Positions 14,358 through 24,573 of a DNA stretch of 64,000 nt are shown piece after piece; the first letter of the stretch is position 1, and each line of letters starts with the position of its first letter. The notes beneath the pieces were generated by a model. That model was given only the letters and a program-made list of their open reading frames with translations. It had not been told where the DNA came from and did no database searches. The stretch is from Peribacillus frigoritolerans. Its GTDB lineage: Bacteria; Bacillota; Bacilli; Bacillales; DSM-1321. A program made the translations under genes and the position numbers. The stretch covers positions 2,840,501 to 2,904,500 of the forward strand of contig JAUPFL010000001.1 in assembly GCA_030562215.1 (NCBI GenBank). Reading direction: 5' to 3'.

Positions 14358-15242
14358 TTGGATTTGCATTCATTAAAAATTTTCCAGAGTGTTGCTAAGA
14401 TGGGGAGTATTTCTCAAGCAGCAAGGGAACTTCAATATGCACAGTCAAATATCACGATGAAAATACAGCAGCTGGAATCGGATCTTCAAACAACTCTTTT
14501 TTATAGACATAATCGTGGCACTGCATTGACTGACAAAGGAATCATGTTGCTAAAATATACAGAAAAGATATTCGACCTCATAGAAGAAACCAAAAATATG
14601 ATGAATGATGATCAAACACCTAGAGGCCCGTTAAATATTGGTTCAATGGAAACAACCGCAGCAGTTCGCTTACCAGTCTTGTTTTCAAAGTATCATAAAG
14701 ATTTTCCAGAGGTCGATTTAACTTTAAAAACAGGCTCTACTGAACAAAATATTCAAGCAGTCCTTCAGAATGAACTTGATGGAGCATTTGTGGCTGGACC
14801 CATTAATCATCCGGATCTCATTCAGAAAGAAGTATTCGAAGAGGAACTAATTCTCATTACAGATACAGTTCACCCTCCTATATCTTCTATCAAAGATATT
14901 CAAGCAAGGACGCTGCTTGTCTTTCATGCAGGATGTGCTTATCGGGAAAAGTTTGAACTATGGTTAAAACAAGAGAAGATGATACCCAATAAGATAATGG
15001 AATTTGGCACTATAGATGGGATTATCGGTTGTGTCGCAGCTGGTCTAGGTATAAGTATGCTTCCACAAAGTGTTATTGCAAAGCATGAACAAGACGGCCT
15101 AAGACAACATACAATTCCGAATCTATACGGAAAAGTCAAAACGGTATTCATTTATCGAAAAGATAAGTATGCACCTGCGTCTTTAATAAAATTTATCAAT
15201 ATGTTAAGTGATGAGGAGGAATTGTTAGATATTAAAATTTAA
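14358..15242 (+). CDS. LysR-family transcriptional regulator
   Basis: 294 residues, full length. Winged HTH at residues 1-60 (LKIFQSVAKMGSISQAARELQYAQSNITMKIQQLE) and a periplasmic-binding-like effector domain with RGPLNIGSMETTAAVRLP at about residue 90. TTG start at 14358 after AAGGAGAGATTATT. It is divergent from the tautomerase/nitronate monooxygenase genes over a 165-base region containing TATAATACTT near 14282, the classic arrangement for a LysR activator of its neighbours. The effector is unknown; nitronate or a similar electrophile would fit. Confidence 0.88.
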   Translation: MDLHSLKIFQSVAKMGSISQAARELQYAQSNITMKIQQLESDLQTTLFYRHNRGTALTDKGIMLLKYTEKIFDLIEETKNMMNDDQTPRGPLNIGSMETTAAVRLPVLFSKYHKDFPEVDLTLKTGSTEQNIQAVLQNELDGAFVAGPINHPDLIQKEVFEEELILITDTVHPPISSIKDIQARTLLVFHAGCAYREKFELWLKQEKMIPNKIMEFGTIDGIIGCVAAGLGISMLPQSVIAKHEQDGLRQHTIPNLYGKVKTVFIYRKDKYAPASLIKFINMLSDEEELLDIKI

Positions 15243-15429
15243 TTTAAGTGGGTAGATATTTTCTTTAATGTACAAAGGTTGTGAAGAAAGGTACTTAAAC
15301 TAAACCAGCCAATAGTTTGTCATCATTTTTCACTAAACACTTAAAATGTTTCATGATATAGCGTATACCAAATAACCGTCCAAGATTCTGTGTTTGGAAA
15401 GTTTTGGGCTGTTTAGTTATACGTTAAAA

Positions 15430-16130
15430 CTAGGCTAGAACTTGGAAAGTCGATTTGCTTTTTAAAAGTGAATAAATCCAATGTAAGAATTTATTGGCAC
15501 ATGCTATAATGGCTACTTTAAAGGCTTTCCTTCCTCACGTTTCTTATCATAAACTCTCGTAATCGCTTGTTACGAGGAATGATTTCATCTGTCGTTTTCT
15601 TTTTGCGACCACGTATGGCACATTTTACAGCCATATACAAGGCGTGTCGTAGCCTACTAGAACCTCTTTTGGTAATTCGATTTAAAGTACCTTTGAATGT
15701 ACCAGATTCAAAGACAATTGGATCGATTCCGGCAAATGCAAGCAGTTTCTTAGGATGATTAAACGATAAATTTCCCCAATTTCTGAAATTATCGTGGCAG
15801 CGATTTTTTCTCCGATACCAGGGATCGATTGGATAATCTTACACTCTTCAATACCTTTTGCTAAAGCATCTATCATCTTCAAGCTTGGATAGATGCTTTT
15901 TGTATTCAGAAGCATATTAATATACATACCCAGGCTTAAAATCAGACTATGATATAGGTTTTTCTGAAATGGATTTTCAGCTGCGGCGGCCATTAATTTT
16001 TCTGCCTGACTGTCTGCCCATTTTTGCGAGCGACTTTTACATAATTCTTTCATTTTCTTGGCGATTGTCTCTTCACTAGTATCCAAGATTTTTTCGGATG
16101 TAAGAAATGCTTGTAAAGTTAGTAAGATAA
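15430..16130 (-). pseudogene. IS110-family transposase, C-terminal half only
   Basis: Encodes the Tnp IS116/IS110/IS902 domain: CKIIQSIPGIGEKIAATIISEIGE, FAGIDPIVFESGTFKGTLNRI and the C-terminal RGSSRLRHALYMAVKCAIRG region with the nucleophilic-serine domain. The N-terminal DEDD (RuvC-like) domain is absent: the frame begins at 16130 without a start, so the element is truncated. Two additional homopolymer-type breaks (about 15762 and 15521) occur. It differs from the complete IS110 element at 21.6-23.1 kb. Confidence 0.8.
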
Positions 16131-16149
16131 TGCTTTAGGGGGAATGGTG

Positions 16150-16646
16150 ATGGAGGAGAATAGTAGGAAATCTTATTATGCTATATTTTTTGTTTAGCAA
16201 TCACCTTACACAATTTAGAAGAAGCATTGTGGTTACCTCAATGGTCACAAACTGGAGCATCATTCCAACAGCCTGTAACACCTAATGAATTTCATTTTGG
16301 AGTATTCATTATTACTGCATTTGCCTATTTAGTTTCCTTTTTATTTCTTAGTTTTCCAAAATCAAAAATTATAAAATGGGCGTATATTGGATTTTTAGGT
16401 TCTATGATTCTTAATGCGTTCTTTCCTCATTTAATTGCTACCATTTTGATGAAAACATACGCTCCAGGACTTATTACAGCTTTATTATTAAACGTACCTA
16501 TTAATGCCGTAATACTTTATACACTACATAAGCAAAATTATATTCGAGTAAAAGAAATTATTATGTCAACAGTAGTTGTGGGGATTATTTTAGTAGCAAT
16601 GATTCCATTTTTATTCACTCTTGGAGATAAATTCATACATTTGTAA
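16150..16646 (+). CDS. HXXEE domain membrane protein (one frame break)
   Basis: With one T added to the T3 run at 16193-16195, the ATG at 16150 reads MEENSRKSYYAIFFVLAITLHNLEEALWLPQW and continues to 16646 (about 165 residues). The motif HNLEE in the first membrane helix defines the HXXEE family (PF13787). Later helices contain NEFHFGVFIITAFAYL and HLIATILMKTYAPGLITALL, with further conserved H and E positions suggesting an intramembrane metal or enzymatic site. Function unknown. A terminator follows at 16682. Confidence 0.75.
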
Positions 16647-16659
16647 TAAGGATATTGAA

Positions 16660-16677
16660 CAGTGCGTTAGTTTAAGA
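16660..16677 (+). repeat. Dispersed repeat fragment
   Basis: AGTGCGTTAGTTTAAGAAG resembles the left-end half joined to the right-end tail, placed 14 bases after a stop codon. Confidence 0.5.
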
Positions 16678-16681
16678 AGAA

Positions 16682-16717
16682 AGGGGAACCTCGACAAATG
16701 AGGTTCCCCTAATTTTT
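16682..16717 (+). terminator. Rho-independent terminator
   Basis: AGGGGAACCTC / GAGGTTCCCCT with a 7-base loop, then AATTTTT. Confidence 0.9.
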
Positions 16718-16822
16718 GTATAAAAATCAACATTTAAATTTAACAGAGCCTATTGATTAAATAGAGGGTTTTTAATAATAAATATTGAAAACATAGGTGA
16801 TTTGAAAAGGGGGAAGGTAATC

Positions 16823-17565
16823 GTGGTCGATAAGGTAGTGTTGGTTGATAATACGTATAAAAGGGCTTTTTTGAAATAGAAGAAACGGATGAGTTCATCA
16901 ATATCAGTGCTAATCAAGATGTTGCTAAGGTCTTTTATACGCTATATAACCGATGTAAAAGATTGTTCATTACCATGCTGTATATAAAAGAGGCACCAGA
17001 CAAAAATGTCACATGTTATGAAGCATTGCCATTGTTAAGAACATTTATCGAAGCCTATTTCCATTTAACTTATGTGATGTCTGAAACAAACAACACAGCG
17101 ATTAAAGAGGGTTATGAAGCTTTAGAAAAGAATTCACACGCCAAGCGTGCAGCTAAATTAAAACATGCAGAAGGTTTAACTGTAGAAGATATGGAATTCA
17201 TTGAGGAATATCAAGGCTTTAAAATGCCAAGAGAGTATGAATTTTTAGATGATATGAGAAAATTATCTGCTAAAACCAATCAACTACAAATATACCGGAC
17301 ACATTATACTGATCTTAATTCATATATACACTTCAATCCTAGTACGGTTTTGAACCATGGACAGGTGCAGGGCAATAAATTCATTTTTAATTTTAATGAG
17401 ACTCAAAATAGAGAGGATTATACATATATTGAAAGAGTCATTTATGCTCTTGGCTGTTTGTTTATATGCGAAGTCAATAACTTTTTAAATAATAAGGAGT
17501 TAGAGGGGAAAATCGGTAATTTAATCGGGAATATTCATAAAGAAGTCTTTGGTATAAAGGACTAA
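16823..17565 (+). CDS. DUF5677-like protein (one frame break)
   Basis: From a GTG at 16823 behind AAGGGGGAAGGTAATC. The frame breaks at the T6 run at 16867-16872; one more T gives MVDKVVLVDNTYKRAFFEIEE and a protein of about 247 residues. The helical core has ALPLLRTFIEAYFHLTYVM and IYRTHYTDLNSYIHFNPSTVL, the arginine/glutamate and Y...H pattern of DUF5677 and related HEPN-like all-alpha proteins. Function unknown; these often occur in accessory and defence-associated regions. Confidence 0.65.
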
Positions 17566-17619
17566 ATAATGTTGATTGTACTTTTGCTAATACTCTATAA
17601 ATATATTTTTGCAAGTGAG

Positions 17620-17647
17620 AACCTTTCCGTTTTCGGAGGTTTTTTTA
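17620..17647 (+). terminator. Weak terminator
   Basis: ACCTTTCCG/CGGAGGT with a TTTT loop and following T7. Confidence 0.55.
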
Positions 17648-17770
17648 GTCTAGAAGTTAAAACTTTAAGACACTTTTAAAATCTAACATATTATTTGTTA
17701 ATTTATCCTTGTTTACTGTCTAAAAGTTAGTCTATAATTAAATGTATAAAAGTTTTAAGACTTATAGACA
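17647..17770 (+). other. Putative resolvase recombination site (res-like)
   Basis: Three related imperfect dyads precede the resolvase gene: 17647-17671 (AGTCTAGAAGTT with AACTTTAAGAC), 17717-17739 (TGTCTAAAAGTTAGTCTATA) and 17745-17770 (ATAAAAGTTTTAAGAC, then TTATAGACA). Tn3-type res sites have three dimer-binding subsites immediately upstream of the resolvase gene, overlapping its promoter. Confidence 0.45.
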
Positions 17771-17784
17771 AAGGATGATACATA

Positions 17785-18351
17785 TTGTTAATTGGTTATG
17801 CGAGGGTTTCAACTACTGGCCAAGATTTAGAAACACAAAAGGAAATTTTGGAAAGTGAAGGGTGTAAAAAGCTTTTTGTTGAAAAAGTAACAGGAACAAG
17901 TACAAAACAAAGAGCCCAACTTTATGAAGCTATTGAATTTGCACGAGAAGGAGATACATTAGTTGTAACTAAAATAGATCGTTTAGCTCGTTCTATTATG
18001 GACTTGAATAAAATAGTTCAGGGGTTGGCTGAAAAAGGGGTTAAAGTTAGATTTGTAAAAGAGGATATGAAGTTTGATGGTTCAAACGAAGGAAATAGCT
18101 TACAAACACTCCTTTTTAATATTTTAGGTTCTTTTGCACAATTTGAACGTGATCTTATTGTAGAAAGAACTACAGAAGGTCGGGAGAGAGCAAAAAGGCA
18201 AGGAAAACATATGGGAAGACCAGGACAAGATGAAAAGACTTTAAAACGAGCTATTAAGCTTTATAATGAACGTGAAACAAACGGAATGAGTGTAAATGAC
18301 ATAGTAAAAGCCACAGGAGTTCCACGTTCCACGTTATATGCTAAAAGGTAA
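17785..18351 (+). CDS. Serine recombinase (resolvase/invertase family)
   Basis: 188 residues, the usual small resolvase length. Catalytic serine in LIGYARVSTTGQD (residue 9), active-site arginines in VVTKIDRLARS, the helix-E region LLFNILGSFAQFERDLIVERT and a C-terminal HTH (MSVNDIVKATGVPRSTLYAKR). It would resolve cointegrates or invert segments through a site probably just upstream. TTG start at 17785. No transposase of a Tn3-type element is nearby. A repeat copy begins at the stop codon, so it also forms one unit of the repeat-bounded series. Confidence 0.92.
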   Translation: MLIGYARVSTTGQDLETQKEILESEGCKKLFVEKVTGTSTKQRAQLYEAIEFAREGDTLVVTKIDRLARSIMDLNKIVQGLAEKGVKVRFVKEDMKFDGSNEGNSLQTLLFNILGSFAQFERDLIVERTTEGRERAKRQGKHMGRPGQDEKTLKRAIKLYNERETNGMSVNDIVKATGVPRSTLYAKR

Positions 18352-18410
18352 TGGGGTTGCTGTGGCAGCTCTTTTCTTATGGAACTAAAGGGGCAGGTTA
18401 GTTCATTAAG
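18352..18410 (+). repeat. Dispersed repeat copy lacking the left end
   Basis: Starts directly after the recombinase stop with the stem GGTTGCTGTGGCAGCTC, TTTTC and the right hairpin AACTAAAGGGGCAGGTTAGTT. The stem sequence differs from the common one but still pairs. Confidence 0.8.
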
Positions 18411-18479
18411 AATTCCGTCAAACTGATGGTGATATATGATAAAATCCAGTCAATAGATGACTATTGAAGGGGAGAAATA

Positions 18480-18728
18480 TTGTTGGAGAAACAATTTGAA
18501 AAAGCACATCGTTTTTGCAAACATAATAGAAAAGACTTAGAAAGTGATACTATATGTGGATGCTTTTATTGTTTGAAAATATTTAATCCCAATGAAATTG
18601 ATGAATGGTGGGACGACGATGACACAGCAGTTTGTCCTTATTGTGGAATTGATTCTGTAATTGGGGAGAGTTCTGGGTTTTCCATCACAGAACTGTTTCT
18701 AAAAGGAATGAATAAGGAATGGTTTTAG
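18480..18728 (+). CDS. Small cytoplasmic protein with two CxxC zinc-binding motifs
   Basis: 82 residues from tandem TTG codons (18480/18483) behind GAAGGGGAGAAATA. Pairs of cysteines in CGCFYCLKIFNP and AVCPYCGID flank an acidic stretch (EWWDDDD), the layout of a zinc ribbon. The remainder (GFSITELFLKGMNKEWF) is conserved in form in small bacterial proteins annotated as cytoplasmic proteins of unknown function. One-gene unit between two repeat copies. Confidence 0.75.
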   Translation: MLEKQFEKAHRFCKHNRKDLESDTICGCFYCLKIFNPNEIDEWWDDDDTAVCPYCGIDSVIGESSGFSITELFLKGMNKEWF

Positions 18729-18746
18729 TGTTTAAGCTGTTGTTTC

Positions 18747-18825
18747 ACTAACGGGTGCTTTAGCTGAAGATCGGGGCTGTCTTTAAGGCAGCTTTTTCTT
18801 ATGGCACTAACGGGACAGAATAGTT
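18747..18825 (+). repeat. Dispersed repeat copy
   Basis: Full copy, 18 bases after the preceding stop; left end CACTAACGGGTGCTTTAGCT, right end CACTAACGGGACAGAATAGTT. Confidence 0.88.
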
Positions 18826-18854
18826 GAAGAATCAATAACAAGGAGTGAGTCGAA

Positions 18855-19265
18855 ATGAGTTTGGCTTCCTACATTGGTTGTAATGTAGAAATACCGAATA
18901 ATGATGAAGAATATACGGAGGATTTTTTTTATATTGGTAGTTGTTTTGCAGGTGAGTATGAACTACTAAATATAAAGAAACATCAATTTACTACCCCTTA
19001 TGTTTATGAAGTATCTAGTCATTGGGGCATTAAGATTTCAGAATATACGACTTCAGAAATCTGTTCCGAATCGAAAAAGAAGCTAATGGAACTATGTAAT
19101 ATTATGGACAGTTACCTTGAAAAAGGAGATTTTTTTGAACTGTACAGTTGTTGGGTTGGAGAAGAAGCTGAAAAGCGAGAGGGTGAGATCATCCTACAAA
19201 TCAATAATTTTGATATTAACCAAATTGAAATTCCTGAAAAAACCTTAGTTAGATTCGAAAAATGA
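18855..19265 (+). CDS. Acidic hypothetical protein
   Basis: 136 residues from ATG 18855 behind AAGGAGTGAGTCGAA. Soluble, acidic, with several aromatic residues (EDFFYIGSCFAGEYELL, SSHWGIKISEYTTSE, FFELYSCWVGEEAEKREGE). No signal peptide and no recognised catalytic motif. Size, acidity and an orphan position resemble contact-dependent immunity-type proteins, but I cannot assign a family. Confidence 0.7.
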   Translation: MSLASYIGCNVEIPNNDEEYTEDFFYIGSCFAGEYELLNIKKHQFTTPYVYEVSSHWGIKISEYTTSEICSESKKKLMELCNIMDSYLEKGDFFELYSCWVGEEAEKREGEIILQINNFDINQIEIPEKTLVRFEK

Positions 19266-19376
19266 ACTCAAATTATTAAACTACCATGAAAGTACAAAAC
19301 AGTGAAAATCTAAAAATGACAATACTAAAGTAGACCCAGCAATATATATATTTTTAAAAACTGAGCCGTAAATTAA

Positions 19377-19467
19377 ACCTCATGTCGCCAATATCAGTAT
19401 GACCACAAAAACCCTACTTTCATTCTCTGTGGTGCAACAACTATTTTTCAGCTGCATGGATGGCTAA
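19377..19467 (-). mobile_element. IS110-family left-end remnant
   Basis: Matches with changes the outer non-coding end of the complete IS110 element at 23065-23147: AATATCAGTATGACC against AATCAGTATTGACC, CATTCTCTGTGGTG against CCTTCTCTGTGGTG, and the same junction CATGGATGGCTAACGGG. It thus abuts another copy of the dispersed repeat at the same position. No transposase remains here. Confidence 0.6.
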
Positions 19468-19490
19468 CGGGACAACATTCCTGTAATAAG
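19463..19490 (+). repeat. Dispersed repeat fragment, tail variant
   Basis: CTAACGGGACAACATTCCTGTAATAAG, the same tail variant as at 5260 and 60252, joined to the IS110 remnant. Confidence 0.6.
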
Positions 19491-19510
19491 TACGTGAATA
19501 AATGTACTTA

Positions 19511-19575
19511 AACAAACGGGTGCGTTAGCTGAAGATTGGTACTGTCTTTAAGGCAGCTTCTTCTTTATGCAATTA
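19511..19575 (+). repeat. Dispersed repeat copy, truncated right end
   Basis: AACAAACGGGTGCGTTAGCT, the central stem with mismatches (GTACTGTC/GGCAGCTTC), then ATGCAATTA where the right hairpin should begin. Confidence 0.75.
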
Positions 19576-19838
19576 TTTGCGAATGTGGAGTTAAAATACT
19601 TAACTTAATAAAAAAAAGGACCTTGGGTATCCAAGATCTTTCTGAGCAGCATAATATTATAATTTTAAGTGGTCATTTTCTTTCTAATTCTTCTTGGTAT
19701 AAATATGCTATTGAGAATACTATACCACATATAAAAAAGCCAAAGTAAAGGTCGATACTCCTGTAAAATGTAGACTAATAAGTGTCGATAAAAAAGTAAA
19801 TAAAAGCCACTTTAAAGAGTCTTTAAATAATTTCCTCA

Positions 19839-20992
19839 TTATCCGTTTACCTCTTTAGCTTTATTTTCTTTCCAATAGACGTCTGAAAACACTTCAGAAA
19901 ATGCATCAATACTTCTATCTAGTTCTTCAAAGTTATTATCTACGCCACCTACTTCAATTAGAATAGCCTTTTCAGAGATATTTTGGTTATAAACCCCATT
20001 ACCCATACTATTAGGTTTAAGGAATATCCCCCGACTTATACCTGGATATCTTTTTTCAAGCTCTGTATTTAATTTTTTACAAACTGTAGGTTTTTTTTCA
20101 TATTTTTCATTTCCTTTTCCGACTACAAAAAATAGCTTCGCGTAATCTTTTCCATTTAGAGTTTTGGTTGTTATATCTCTACGTGAGGAATCACGATGAA
20201 TGTCTATATAATACTCCAATTTTCCATTTTTGTTTGCATTAGCTTCAATTATAGCTCCAGACATACTATAAGATTTAGTTGATTTCCATTGTCTCTTATT
20301 CAACTCTTCAGTCATGTTAGTTTGATCATGTTCGGTTCCTATACCTTGCTCATTCAATTTATTACTTAATCGACTTCCGAGGGCAACAACATTAACTCTA
20401 TTGTCGTTACTTATTGCATCATCTGGAACTTTAGCATCTCTTAGCAGAGGTAGGTAAGACTCCCAACTATGAGTTTGATAAATAAATACTGTTTTATTTT
20501 GAATTTCAGGACTATTTTTTATTGGTGAATCATCTTCATGCCCTTTATTTTGTAGTTCCTCTTCTACTACATCTCTTTCTTTTAATAAAACATCTGTAGG
20601 CGGTGAAGATTCTAAAGGTAATGTAGTAAGATCAGTCCCTTCTCCGGCAACTGCAATTTCATAATCGTAAGCTGATAGTCCAGGTAGTTCACTTCCTAAA
20701 AAGGTTCTAATATCATCTGGCCTTATATTTACACCTAACTCCATTAGATACATTGAAACGTTTCCTAATGTTAACCAATTTTCACCGGTATCTTGAAAAA
20801 ATAATGATTTTCTGTACGCATCATTTGAGAAAATAATTGCTCTGATTTCACTTCTTTTAAAGTGTCTTGAATAAGTTTATATTGATAGCTTATGTTTAAA
20901 CTGATTATGATTCCGGTAATAACGAATGATAATATAATCAATAACGTTGAACTAGTTATTATTAAAAACGCAAACCTCCTAGATTTTTTCAT
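19839..20992 (-). CDS. spoIIP: Stage II sporulation protein P-like peptidoglycan hydrolase (one frame break)
   Basis: About 384 residues once one T is added to the run near 20797 joining NHYFFQDTGENWLT. N-terminal membrane anchor (residues 8-32, FLIITSSTLLIILSFVITGI) and a C-terminal amidase/endopeptidase domain with TVFIYQTHSWESYLPLL, YIDIHRDSSRRD and KAILIEVGGVDN. SpoIIP cleaves stem peptides and cross-links during engulfment and works with SpoIID and SpoIIM. ATG 20992 follows GGAGGACTGCT. Bacilli normally carry spoIIP near gpr; this copy lies in accessory DNA, so it may be a paralogue. Confidence 0.85.
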
Positions 20993-21135
20993 AGCAGTCC
21001 TCCATGGTTCATTTATATGCTAGAGGGTAGAAAATATTAAAGCTTATTTAAATAGAGTTTAATTTTCGATTACTTTTAAATAAAGTTGAATAGGACAAAT
21101 TTTGATTTGTAGATTCTAGGCCTTTTCCTTAATTT

Positions 21136-21215
21136 AACTAACATGTGCGTTAGCTGAAGATCGGAGCTGTCTTTAAGGCAATCTTTTCTTATGGAACTAA
21201 CGGGGCAGGATAGTT
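21136..21215 (+). repeat. Dispersed repeat copy
   Basis: Full copy with right hairpin AACTAACGGGGCAGGATAGTT. It lies between divergent genes (spoIIP on the minus strand, the next gene on the plus strand), so here it does not follow a + strand gene. Confidence 0.85.
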
Positions 21216-21268
21216 CATTACAGTTTATAATATGAGTAGACTTTGATTTAAATTGAAGAGATAAAATA

Positions 21269-21637
21269 ATGCGTTCTTTTTTGAGAAAAGAATTTTGGGA
21301 TGATAGAAATAAACCTATTCTGTTTATACAGTGGGCATTGACACTCTTTGCAATAATATTATATTTCCAAACTTATGACAGTATAGATTACTTTTACTCT
21401 GGAATTTTAAGACTAATTGCAGGAATAATCACCCTTTTAATAGGAATTGAAAACTACATTGTTAAAAAAAGAGAATATATATTTTGGTTCATCCTATCGA
21501 TTTTGTTTTGTGGAATGGGGATAGACATATTAATGAACTACCATGAAAATAGACTTCTGGAATTTAGGGAAAAGGCAATACTTAAGAAGACGCAGCTCAT
21601 TGTTTTTTTAAAAAGGGGAGAGCGCCTAATTTACTGA
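21269..21637 (+). CDS. Hypothetical membrane protein, stop codon altered by IS110 insertion
   Basis: 122 residues with three hydrophobic helices (LFIQWALTLFAIILYF, LRLIAGIITLLIGI, IFWFILSILFCGMGI) and a charged C-terminal tail. No strong ribosome binding site is seen. The IS110 element starts within the last codons: the present stop TGA is at the junction, while joining the two flanks would give TAC TAA CGGG, a stop inside the repeat. The protein is therefore essentially unchanged by the insertion. Family not recognised. Confidence 0.65.
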   Translation: MRSFLRKEFWDDRNKPILFIQWALTLFAIILYFQTYDSIDYFYSGILRLIAGIITLLIGIENYIVKKREYIFWFILSILFCGMGIDILMNYHENRLLEFREKAILKKTQLIVFLKRGERLIY

Positions 21638-21661
21638 TTTATTGTAGGTAAGTGGACTGGA

Positions 21662-22884
21662 TTAAGATGCTTCAGTTTCTTGTAATGTAACTGTGTATCC
21701 TAAACTTTCAAGTCTTCTTAGTGAATGCCGAAAAATTGATTGTTGTCTCTGTTTATCAAAGTAGTCTTCGCCTAAGTCTACATACATTTCTTTCCGAGTT
21801 AAGAGATAATAGGAGATACGTAACATGGCATGAGCGACTACTATTCCTGCTCGTTTCTTACCTTTTCGTGATGCTGTACGCCTATACAGTGCTCCGAGAT
21901 AGTTTTTAGATCCTCTTACAGAATGAGCTGCTTCTGTTAATGCTGATCTCAAATACTTGTTTCCTTTTTTGTTTTAGCCGATTTTCTTTTTCCCGCACTT
22001 TCGTTATGCCCAGGAACTAGTCCTGCCCAAGAACACATATGAGCTGCACTTGGAAACTGTTTCTTAATATCAGTCCCAATTTCAGATAAAATTTGCTCAG
22101 CCATTCTTGTAGCTATACCAGGAATAGAGTCTAATCGTTCCACATCTTCTTGATAGGAGCTTACTCTTTCCTCGACCTCTTGGTCGAGCATCTCGATTTG
22201 TTCTGTTAAAAAATCAATATGCTTTAAAATGGTTTTTAACATGAGGCGTTGATGCGAATTGATATAACCTTTAAGGGCGAGTTCTAGTTCATCTTTCTTC
22301 TTTTTCATTGTGCGTCGGGCAAAGTTTGCTAGTTTTTCAGGATCTTCTTCACCTTCAGCAATTGCGTTAAGCATGTCTCGAGCTGAAACACCCATAACGT
22401 CTGAAACGACAGAGCCTAGCTTAATATTTGCGCCCTCTAACACTTTTTGGATTCGATTATGTTGTCTAGCACGTTCTTCAATGATACTTCTACGGTACCG
22501 AACTAGTTCACGTAGTTCCCGTTGATTTCGATCTGGAATGTAACTAGCTTTTAGAAGTCCATGACGAAGAAGTTTGGCAATCCATTCTGCATCTTTAACA
22601 TCTGTTTTACGCCCTGGCACTGCTTTCATATGTTGAGCATTCACAACTAAAAATTCAATCTCTTCAGCTTCTAATAAATTAACAATAGGTTTCCAATATA
22701 CACTGGTACTCTCAATGGCAACGTGAGTACAGTTATTCTTTTTAATCCAATCCACTAACTGTATTAGAAAAACAGTTTTTGTTGAAAACGTTTGAATCTC
22801 CTTTCCTTCTGGTGTCATAATACATGCAGTAATATTGTCCTTATGGACATCCATACCACATGCTCTTTCAATGACTACTTCCAT
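21662..22884 (-). CDS. IS110-family transposase (one frame break)
   Basis: About 407 residues from ATG 22884 behind AGAAAGGATG. The N-terminal DEDD (RuvC-like) domain shows GMDVHKDNITACIM, HVAIESTSVYWKP and RKTDVKDAEWIAKLLRHG. The C-terminal Tnp domain has LDSIPGIATRMAEQILSEIG, then AGLVPGHNESAGKRKSAKT and the region KGNKYLRSALTEAAHSV containing the conserved serine. The frame breaks near 21968 and one more A (AAAAA to AAAAAA) restores it. These recombinases are guided by a bridge RNA transcribed from the element's non-coding end. Confidence 0.88.
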
Positions 22885-23143
22885 TGAAAACATCCTTTCT
22901 ACGGCTCTCAATACAATTGGAGGCTGGTGCAAAAACCAGAATAGGATTAATCTACCATGTGTGCTTCCCGTAAGGGAGCGACAGTCAGTGGTGCACCTTG
23001 GTCGTTGGAGTCAGACTAACGGATGGGCTCTAACGCACCATAGTTCATCGACCTTCCTCTCCCAGCCGTAGAATCAGTATTGACCGTTCTGAACCATTTT
23101 CCTTCTCTGTGGTGAAGCGCTGATTTTTGCGCTTCATGGATGG
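22885..23143 (-). ncRNA. Probable IS110 bridge RNA region
   Basis: Upstream non-coding end of the element, in the position of the IS621-type bridge RNA. On the + strand it contains ACTAACGG at 23015-23022 and CTAACGCACC at 23030-23039. Read as RNA from the minus strand these give GGTGCGTTAG, then CCGTTAGT: one segment identical to the target (GGTGCGTTAG) and one complementary to it (ACTAACGG). This is the arrangement expected of left and right target guides in a target-binding loop. Further stems include CGCTCCCTTACGGGAAGC (22966-22980). Confidence 0.6.
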
Positions 23144-23165
23144 CTAACGGGTGCGTTAGTTGATT
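23143..23165 (+). repeat. Dispersed repeat remainder beyond the IS110 element
   Basis: CTAACGGGTGCGTTAGTTGATTAAG. With ACT from the other side of the element it forms a minimal copy like that at 1403. Confidence 0.75.
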
Positions 23166-23253
23166 AAGTATCAAAAAATGATCAAGCTTTTTAATAAAAT
23201 AAGCAAGAAGATTAAAAAATAAGTTGTGTTCGAAAAAGGGGGGTATAGATATT

Positions 23254-23477
23254 GCCTTCCTCTTTGTGTTTACAGATAAATTTATATAGCTGTATTGTTT
23301 ATAATGTACTCGATTTTGTATCTCAAAACAGTTAGAGATTGAATTGGTGCGGTTTTGAGTGGATTAATAACTCTATGTACTCAAATTCATGTCCCCAATG
23401 TAATTATCTTTGTGTCTTCGTACAGCGTCCTATTAGCTGGTTCATTTCGAATAGATATATGGAAAATGACTAAATAA
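23254..23477 (+). pseudogene. Remnant of a small membrane protein gene
   Basis: The stretch reads IAVLFIMYSILYLKTVRD, a stop, then IGAVLSGLITLCTQIHVPNVIIF and SVLLAGSFRIDIWKMTK to a stop at 23477, with an additional frame break near 23284. Two hydrophobic helices are evident. A GGGGGG run at 23241-23246 may be its ribosome binding site. Decayed or affected by sequence errors; not identified. Confidence 0.35.
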
Positions 23478-23537
23478 AAAAGACAGCCACTATAATCTGG
23501 CTGTTGTGTAGTAGCAATAAAGTTATTTTAACGAATT

Positions 23538-24573
23538 CTAGGGAGAATTGCTTAAGGATGGTTCTTTAATTTTCATCGTACCACTAACCTCCTCTGCTAT
23601 TAATTTATAGGACTTTAAACGATCTTCAAAGTTGTGTGTGTTTGTTACTATCATTATTTCGTTAACTTGGTGTATTTTCTTAATTTCTAGAAGTTGTTTT
23701 TTTACTTCCTCAGGGTTACCAATAATCATTTGCTTTTTTCTTTCTTTGATATAAATTTCTTCTTCTTTATTGAATATGTACTTTTAACTTCTTTCATTGA
23801 CGGTATTCCTTTTCCGCCCTCTCCTTTTGCAATGTTAATTTCCCATAATAGACTACTTAACGCAATATCCCCCGCATTTCTACTTGTCTCTGAACAAATT
23901 ACAGAAACTGCAATTAAAGGGTTTGGGTGTTTCAATAACCCATTTGATTTGAAATTTTGAATATACGTGTCTATTATCATTTGTCCTTCACTGTTATTAA
24001 TAAAATGTCCAAATGCATATGATATCCCATTTTGTGCTGCAAGGTAGGCACTTTTTTTGTAGTTCCAAGAATCCAAGGCTGAGGAGAGATATTTGGTACA
24101 GGGTGTGCACTTATATTTGCATATTCGTGGTCAGGTGAAAATTTATTATTGAGAAAACCTAATAACTCATTAATAGAAGTAGGCATTTTTCGTACTTGTT
24201 CTAAAAAGTCATCTGAGAGAACAAGTTTAGCTTTATCAGAGCCACCAGGACCTCTGCCAATTCCAATATCAAACCGCCCAGGGAAAAGCGTCCCAAGCGT
24301 ATTGAAAATTTCAGCAACTTTGTAGGGTTTATAATAGGGTAGTAGAAGCGCACCAGAACCCAGACGAATTTTTTCTGTATTTGCTCCAATGTATGCTAAC
24401 ATGACTTCGGGACACGAGCAAGCAAGCTCTGGTGTATTATGATGCTCTGCTATCCAGTATCGAATATAACCAAGCGTCTCTGCAACTTTAGCTAATTCAA
24501 CAGATTCTAATAATGTCTCTCGATTAGTCCTACCTTCAGATCTTGCAGCTATATCCAATACACTTAATTTCAA
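23538..24573 (-). CDS. Luciferase-like (LLM) flavin-dependent monooxygenase (two frame breaks)
   Basis: About 345 residues from TTG 24573 behind AAAAGGGGAATTTT. The N-terminus LSVLDIAARSEGRTNRETL, then YIRYWIAEHHNTPELACSCPE and LRLGSGALLLPYYKPYKVAE, LFPGRFDIGIGRGPG, are typical of the bacterial-luciferase TIM barrel of the CmoJ/YvbT-like group (F420/FMN). Breaks lie at the A7 run near 24050 (restoring GTTKKSAYLAAQNGISYAFG) and near 23780 (restoring EVKKYIFNKEEEIYIKERK). Last gene of a minus-strand cluster; in that setting it may oxidise a peptide product. Confidence 0.85.

What the first reader, a model, noticed from the sequence alone, without database searches (positions are those of the whole stretch)
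19377..19490. Second IS110 left end at the same position of another repeat copy
A degenerate version of the outer end of the complete IS110 element abuts CTAACGGG at 19463, with the identical junction CATGGATGGCTAACGGG. Two independent junctions at one position of the repeat support site-directed insertion. The transposase is gone, so excision or deletion followed.
Basis: seen in the sequence. Interest (0 to 1): 0.5.

Follow-up and report, generated by a model that had tools for sequence, protein, structure and literature searches.

The report
Miniature IS110 element, both ends present
The sequence is not a broken-off end of a jumping gene but a complete 181-base miniature version of it, related to a family of tiny elements in this bacterial genus that probably borrow another element's enzyme and guide RNA to insert at a fixed short sequence.

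Summary
The IS110 outer end at 19391-19463 is real (profile from 73 relatives, E 6.5e-9; the only hit in the window besides the complete element). The opposite end is also there: 19283-19362 (profile from 68 relatives, E 2.7e-7), in the right order and orientation, with core CT on both sides. So 19283-19463 is a whole 181-bp miniature without transposase or bridge RNA, not a lone left end. In seven related genomes found with the full-length orthologous upstream gene the element is absent; in six an uninterrupted ACTAA sits at the equivalent place. Forty-nine near-full-length miniatures of about 201 bp occur in 19 of 36 genus genomes; the focal copy is a diverged relative. A second type, about 378 bp, keeps the guide-RNA region. 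"Excision or deletion followed" is therefore not needed, and "same position of the repeat" is wrong: the two insertions share CTAACGGG but lie in different parts of the repeat. Guide-target agreement in autonomous relatives (53 of 55) supports RNA-guided targeting. Most likely mechanism, inferred: mobilised in trans by IS110 recombinase plus bridge RNA. New variant of a known kind.

The parts
19283..19463 (-). complete miniature (181 bp) IS110-derived element, no transposase, no bridge-RNA region
   Evidence: LE and RE profiles; borders; match along its length to about 201-bp miniatures
19391..19463 (-). outer about 73 nt of the transposase-proximal end (LE)
   Evidence: LE profile E 6.5e-9
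19283..19362 (-). opposite end (RE) of the same element
   Evidence: RE profile E 2.7e-7; pairwise matches to other copies
19281..19282 (.). core CT on the RE side
   Evidence: junctions of relatives
19464..19465 (.). core CT on the LE side, start of target CTAACGGG
18855..19265 (+). 136-aa ORF (no Pfam match at E<=0.001) whose orthologues are followed by the empty site
19508..19590 (+). degenerate copy (71%) of the target repeat beside the element
   Evidence: family D1
21540..23143 (-). complete IS110-family element (1604 bp), transposase split by a frame change
22922..23067 (-). predicted bridge-RNA region of the complete element (absent from the focal element)
   Evidence: consensus fold of alignment A1, columns 20-172; coordinates derived by counting
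23042..23049 (-). 5' target guide GATGAACT
23016..23023 (-). 3' target guide TCCGTTAG
22952..22959 (-). donor guide CATGGTAG, identical to RE end plus core at 21538-21545

Best explanation
19283-19463 is a complete, old, non-autonomous miniature IS110 element. It consists of about 73 nt of one end and about 80 nt of the other end of an IS110-family element, with a short stretch between; transposase and bridge RNA are missing. It inserted at the CT of an ACTAACGGG sequence just downstream of the gene at 18855-19265. Inferred mechanism: an IS110 recombinase loaded with bridge RNA, both supplied in trans by an autonomous copy, paired with the two ends (donor loop) and with ATGAA-CT-AACGG-type sites (target loop) and exchanged strands at the CT core. 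Shown here: both ends, core at both borders, empty orthologous sites, a multicopy family of the same layout, guide-target and guide-end agreement in autonomous relatives. Inferred: mobilisation in trans, and that this copy arrived as a miniature.
For: Independent LE and RE profiles each give one extra hit in the window, adjacent, in order and in the same orientation. Core CT at both borders. Seven same-genus genomes found with the full-length orthologous gene (80.6-87.1% identity) have no LE or RE profile hit at E<=0.01 in the DNA held (1500 bp downstream); in 6 of 7 an uninterrupted ACTAA puts the CT 12-15 nt past the aligned end (focal: 15), and 3 of 7 read ACTAACGGG (offsets derived from the printed ones). 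Miniatures: 69 matches to one 201-bp copy in 23 of 36 genomes, 49 near full length in 19 genomes: 36 at 88% identity or more, 1 at 82%, 12 at 73-78% (my count of its rows). The focal element matches short miniatures along their length; 10 of them, and L163, score above the best autonomous end. In one search the matches of the miniature to autonomous and long elements run 1-74 in 19 of 20 listed rows (one runs 1-49), i.e. stop about 3 nt before the first predicted pair of the bridge RNA. Guide-target: 53 of 55 exact, shuffle mean 31.7, maximum 42 in 10,000; donor guide against RE terminal base: 59 of 59 parsed of 62 autonomous elements. Transposase copies are few: 14 in 9 of 36 genomes at E<=1e-90. 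Published work moved ISEc11 (IS1111 type) with its centre replaced when transposase and RNA region were supplied in trans, and the RNA region of ISEc21 (IS110 type) worked in cis or in trans (PMC11187229, passages).
Against: The focal copy is diverged (the 201-bp query does not find it at E<=1e-20), so it could descend from a separate internal deletion; only one other copy sharing its inner sequence was seen (L163, itself degenerate at the LE). In one search autonomous ends were split by a spacer, which lowers their score against full-length miniatures, and the best autonomous LE (L045, 2.6e-8) outranks many miniatures. No transcription or mobility data. The genome's only near-complete transposase of this kind is split by a frame change. 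RNA structure shows little covariation: 1 of 36 pairs. The genomes with the empty site are other species, not strains. One of seven orthologues (L112), a partial match (L114) and the genome's own paralogue (L156) show no ACTAA there.
Confidence: 0.88

Rival explanations
1. A full IS110 element inserted here and later lost its transposase and guide RNA by an internal deletion at this locus.
For: The focal copy is diverged from the 201-bp family and has its own inner sequence.
Against: Elements of the same layout with the same LE boundary recur at many other sites, the focal element matches them along its length, and L163 in another genome shares its inner sequence.
Confidence: 0.09
2. One reading: a lone left end left behind by excision or deletion.
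For: The LE end and the junction are real.
Against: The other end is present and bordered by core CT; the orthologous sites found are without any trace of an end.
Confidence: 0.02
3. Similarity limited to the target repeat, or chance.
For: The target repeat is abundant (15 CTAACGGG).
Against: The matches lie inside the element, outside the repeat, and come from profiles of other species with E 6.5e-9 and 2.7e-7.
Confidence: 0.01

Closest known systems
IS110 elements with bridge RNA (IS621; PMC11208160, abstract and passages)
   Same: IS110 recombinase with a structured RNA encoded in the LE; a first loop that pairs with the target and a second that pairs with the donor; covariation of RNA with target and donor; REP elements among IS621 targets
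   Different: The focal element has neither recombinase nor RNA. That the IS621 core is CT is recalled, not read in a passage
ISEc11 (IS1111 type) and ISEc21 (IS110 type) with seekRNA (PMC11187229, passages)
   Same: RNA-guided target choice; the RNA region works in trans; ISEc11 ends with a replaced centre moved when transposase and RNA region were given in trans; ISPa11 targets REP
   Different: There the ends-only donor was an engineered construct; here ends-only copies are natural and multicopy
Bacterial MITEs such as MITEPye1 (IS1182-related, 159 bp; PMC11578231, passages)
   Same: Short non-autonomous copies related to an IS through their ends and presumed to be mobilised in trans
   Different: The IS110 miniatures lack long terminal inverted repeats, sit at one motif and would also need an RNA in trans

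Membership tests
IS110 family (element 21540-23143) | DEDD_Tnp_IS110 and Transposase_20 domains | tested here: met
   PF01548 E 1.9e-40 and PF02371 E 1.3e-13 in the first frame of the split gene; the second frame alone gave no match
IS110 family (element 21540-23143) | bridge RNA with target and donor guides | tested here: met
   guide-target 53 of 55 and donor guide-end 59 of 59 parsed, of 62 autonomous elements including this one; two-loop consensus fold but 1 of 36 pairs covaries; no Rfam match; expression not tested
IS110-derived miniature element (focal) | both element ends in correct order and orientation | tested here: met
IS110-derived miniature element (focal) | core dinucleotide at both borders | tested here: met
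IS110-derived miniature element (focal) | empty orthologous site | tested here: met
   7 of 7 full-length orthologues found lack the element; 6 of 7 have ACTAA at the place
IS110-derived miniature element (focal) | multicopy family | tested here: inconclusive
   met for the about 201-bp relatives (49 near-full-length copies in 19 of 36 genomes); for the focal inner sequence only one more copy was seen (L163)
classical MITE | terminal inverted repeats of notable length | tested here: not met
   the ends CCATCCATG... and ...TTTCATGGT share by eye only a short subterminal inverted CCATG; no formal search was run; hence 'MITE-like'
IS110-derived miniature element (focal) | mobilised in trans by recombinase and bridge RNA | not testable with these tools
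   needs an experiment

The most novel reading that the evidence does not exclude
Two natural classes of RNA-guided miniature elements exist in this genus: ends-only ones (181-204 bp, the focal copy among them) that need both recombinase and bridge RNA in trans, and about 378-bp ones that carry their own bridge RNA, whose donor guide (ATGGGAG in 37 of 38 parsed) fits their own end (CATGGG) rather than that of the window's autonomous element (ATGGTAG with CATGGT). The latter would be protein-less mobile guide RNAs that borrow only the recombinase.
Probability: 0.5. Interest if true: 0.68.

Novelty: new variant of a known kind. Interest (0 to 1): 0.5.

Why it matters
Bridge-RNA recombinases can be reprogrammed for DNA rearrangement (abstract of PMC11208160). 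Natural ends-only and RNA-carrying derivatives would show which DNA ends suffice as a donor (about 74 nt plus about 80-128 nt), suggest that the guide RNA acts in trans in nature, and give ready-made minimal donors to test. My searches for IS110 miniature elements in print turned up none, but they cover open-access PMC only and one search listed 30 of 567 papers. A 2024 review of prokaryotic MITEs (PMC10969869) is listed with zero occurrences of IS110 (listing only).

Tried and rejected
Rfam on 15000-24000: no match at E<=1. A first RE query was cut at the wrong place and gave mostly flank hits; repeated correctly. RNA structure covariation as evidence: too conserved to help, 1 of 36 pairs. 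The 5' target guide test is weak: mean 5.27 of 8 against 4.93 shuffled, though 0 of 5000 shuffles reach it. Of the paper leads holding IS110 and MITE, three were looked at by passages and concerned other families. The shuffles ignore relatedness and no tree was built; the minority guides CCTAT and CCTTT recur in several genera by the record titles, which argues against a single inherited change.

Dropped rows: of 80 relatives 73 gave an LE and 68 an RE, 62 both; one of the 62 (L078, RE taken from a different copy) was dropped and the window element added, giving 62; L078 had stayed in the RE profile. Of the 62, 55 had a parsed 6-nt guide and an AG-ended flank. Of 100 miniature loci a strict pattern parsed 76 (34 short, 42 long), 24 not; it demands AG after the RE end, so AG there is by construction, but CCCGTTAG before the LE end is not (24 of 34 short, 39 of 42 long). 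First-look candidates were capped per genome and some lists were cut, so copy counts are lower bounds and further orthologues may exist.

Full report
The finding. The match is real: 54 nt at 81% including the flank, E 1e-7 in the whole genome. An LE profile made from 73 elements of other species finds two places in the 64-kb window, the complete element (23143-22885) and 19463-19391 (E 6.5e-9).

The other end is there too. The first hints were a 26-nt repeat (19269-19294 with 21526-21551) and other copies in the genome, which run from a CCCATGAAAATT end to a CATGGATGG end. An RE profile made from 68 relatives finds the complete element (21670-21540) and 19362-19283 (E 2.7e-7); the next hits have E 0.36 or worse. 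Order and orientation are those of an intact element, and CT lies at both borders, 19281-19282 and 19464-19465. The element is thus 181 bp and complete. The complete neighbour is 21540-23143, 1604 bp; of 62 relatives with both ends called, 59 are 1563-1611 bp long, the others being one miscalled RE and two longer ones.

Empty sites. Full-length orthologues (80.6-87.1%) of the gene at 18855-19265 were found in 7 of the 36 genus genomes searched (the 36 include the window's own; the list was cut at its weak end). None has an LE or RE profile hit at E<=0.01 in the DNA held. In 6 of 7 an uninterrupted ACTAA follows, its CT beginning 12-15 nt past the aligned end, against 15 in the window; three read ACTAACGGG. 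The seventh (L112), a partial match (L114) and the window genome's own paralogue (L156) have no ACTAA there. The simplest reading is insertion in the window's lineage.

A family of miniatures. One 201-bp miniature used as query gives 69 matches in 23 of 36 genomes; 49 of them are near full length (my count of rows covering at least positions 2-199), in 19 genomes: 36 at 88% identity or more, 1 at 82%, 12 at 73-78%, the last perhaps separate deletions. One is in this genome (C2, L017). Twelve of those 19 genomes have no match to this transposase at E<=1e-90. Of 7 further genomes of the family outside the genus, 3 have a match at E<=1e-15. Matches of the miniature to autonomous and long elements run 1-74 in 19 of 20 listed rows, ending about 3 nt before the first predicted pair of the RNA (position 77 by counting). 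The focal element aligns to the short miniatures along its length, best to L184 (E 3.6e-12); 10 of them and L163 score above the best autonomous end (L045, 2.6e-8), others below. L163, in another genome, shares the focal inner sequence but is degenerate at its LE. The focal copy is therefore a diverged relative, not a close copy.

A second type of about 378 bp has the whole LE, RNA region included, and a more diverged RE. Five such copies are in this genome (L009, L010, L011, L013, L014), and by my count of rows 48 near-full-length ones in 16 of 36 genomes. Parsed long copies end in CATGGG or CTTGGG (last base G in 42 of 42), parsed short ones in T (33 of 34).

RNA guidance. In autonomous elements the four nucleotides before AG in the 3' target guide equal those before AG in the target in 53 of 55 parsed cases (of 62), against a shuffle mean of 31.7 and a maximum of 42 in 10,000; of 14 minority guides 13 match, for example CCTAT with CCCTATAG and CCTTT with CCCTTTAG. 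The donor guide base agrees with the RE terminal base in 59 of 59 parsed autonomous elements and in 37 of 38 parsed long miniatures; the exception, L208, is one of this genome's own. The 5' guide test is weaker. The consensus fold has two arms whose loops hold the guides, but only 1 of 36 pairs has changes on both sides. Published IS110 elements work this way (PMC11208160, passages; PMC11187229, passages).

Two targets, not one. The 23144 insertion sits at CTAACGGGTGCGTTAG, the palindromic end of the repeat; the focal one at CTAACGGGACA, resembling the repeat's other end. Both contexts are used in the genus: of 42 parsed long copies 23 have the first, 13 the second, 6 another; of 34 short ones 18, 5 and 11.

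The organism.

Verdict. A complete, old, ends-only miniature IS110 element, most likely inserted at a guide-RNA-defined site by factors supplied in trans. New variant of a known kind; interest 0.5, mainly for the family it reveals.

Noticed in passing
L018:2093-2201 and L100:860-969 (window genome, C1 about 1762200 and 1365465): Two long miniatures at different sites lack the outer 118 nt of the LE and are joined to the target flank at CCGTTAG, which is both target sequence and 3' target guide: deletion between short direct repeats, or self-targeting of the guide's own DNA.
   Followed up: partly
window 1405-59067 (15 sites): CTAACGGG occurs 15 times against 0.59 expected, 14 of 15 on the + strand; short matches elsewhere in the genome also keep one strand over long stretches.
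   Followed up: no
window 15682-16086 (-): Remnant with a weak C-terminal IS110-type transposase match (PF02371, E 2.9e-4, just over the cut-off).
   Followed up: no
window 23726-24573 (-): A luciferase-like monooxygenase gene appears split over two overlapping frames (PF00296 in 23977-24573; the second frame was not scanned).
   Followed up: no
window 21949-22932 and 21662-21952 (-): The only near-complete transposase of this kind found in the genome is split by a frame change near 21950.
   Followed up: partly
RE-side flanks of L193, L213, L224 and others; window 19494-19520: Insertions at different places share a second flank type, AGTTTAAGTACATTTnTTCACAA, apparently another repeat used as target; a similar stretch lies beside the focal element.
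   Followed up: no
window 19839-20753 (-): SpoIIP-type sporulation protein (PF07454, E 2.6e-74), the next listed ORF after the focal element.
   Followed up: no
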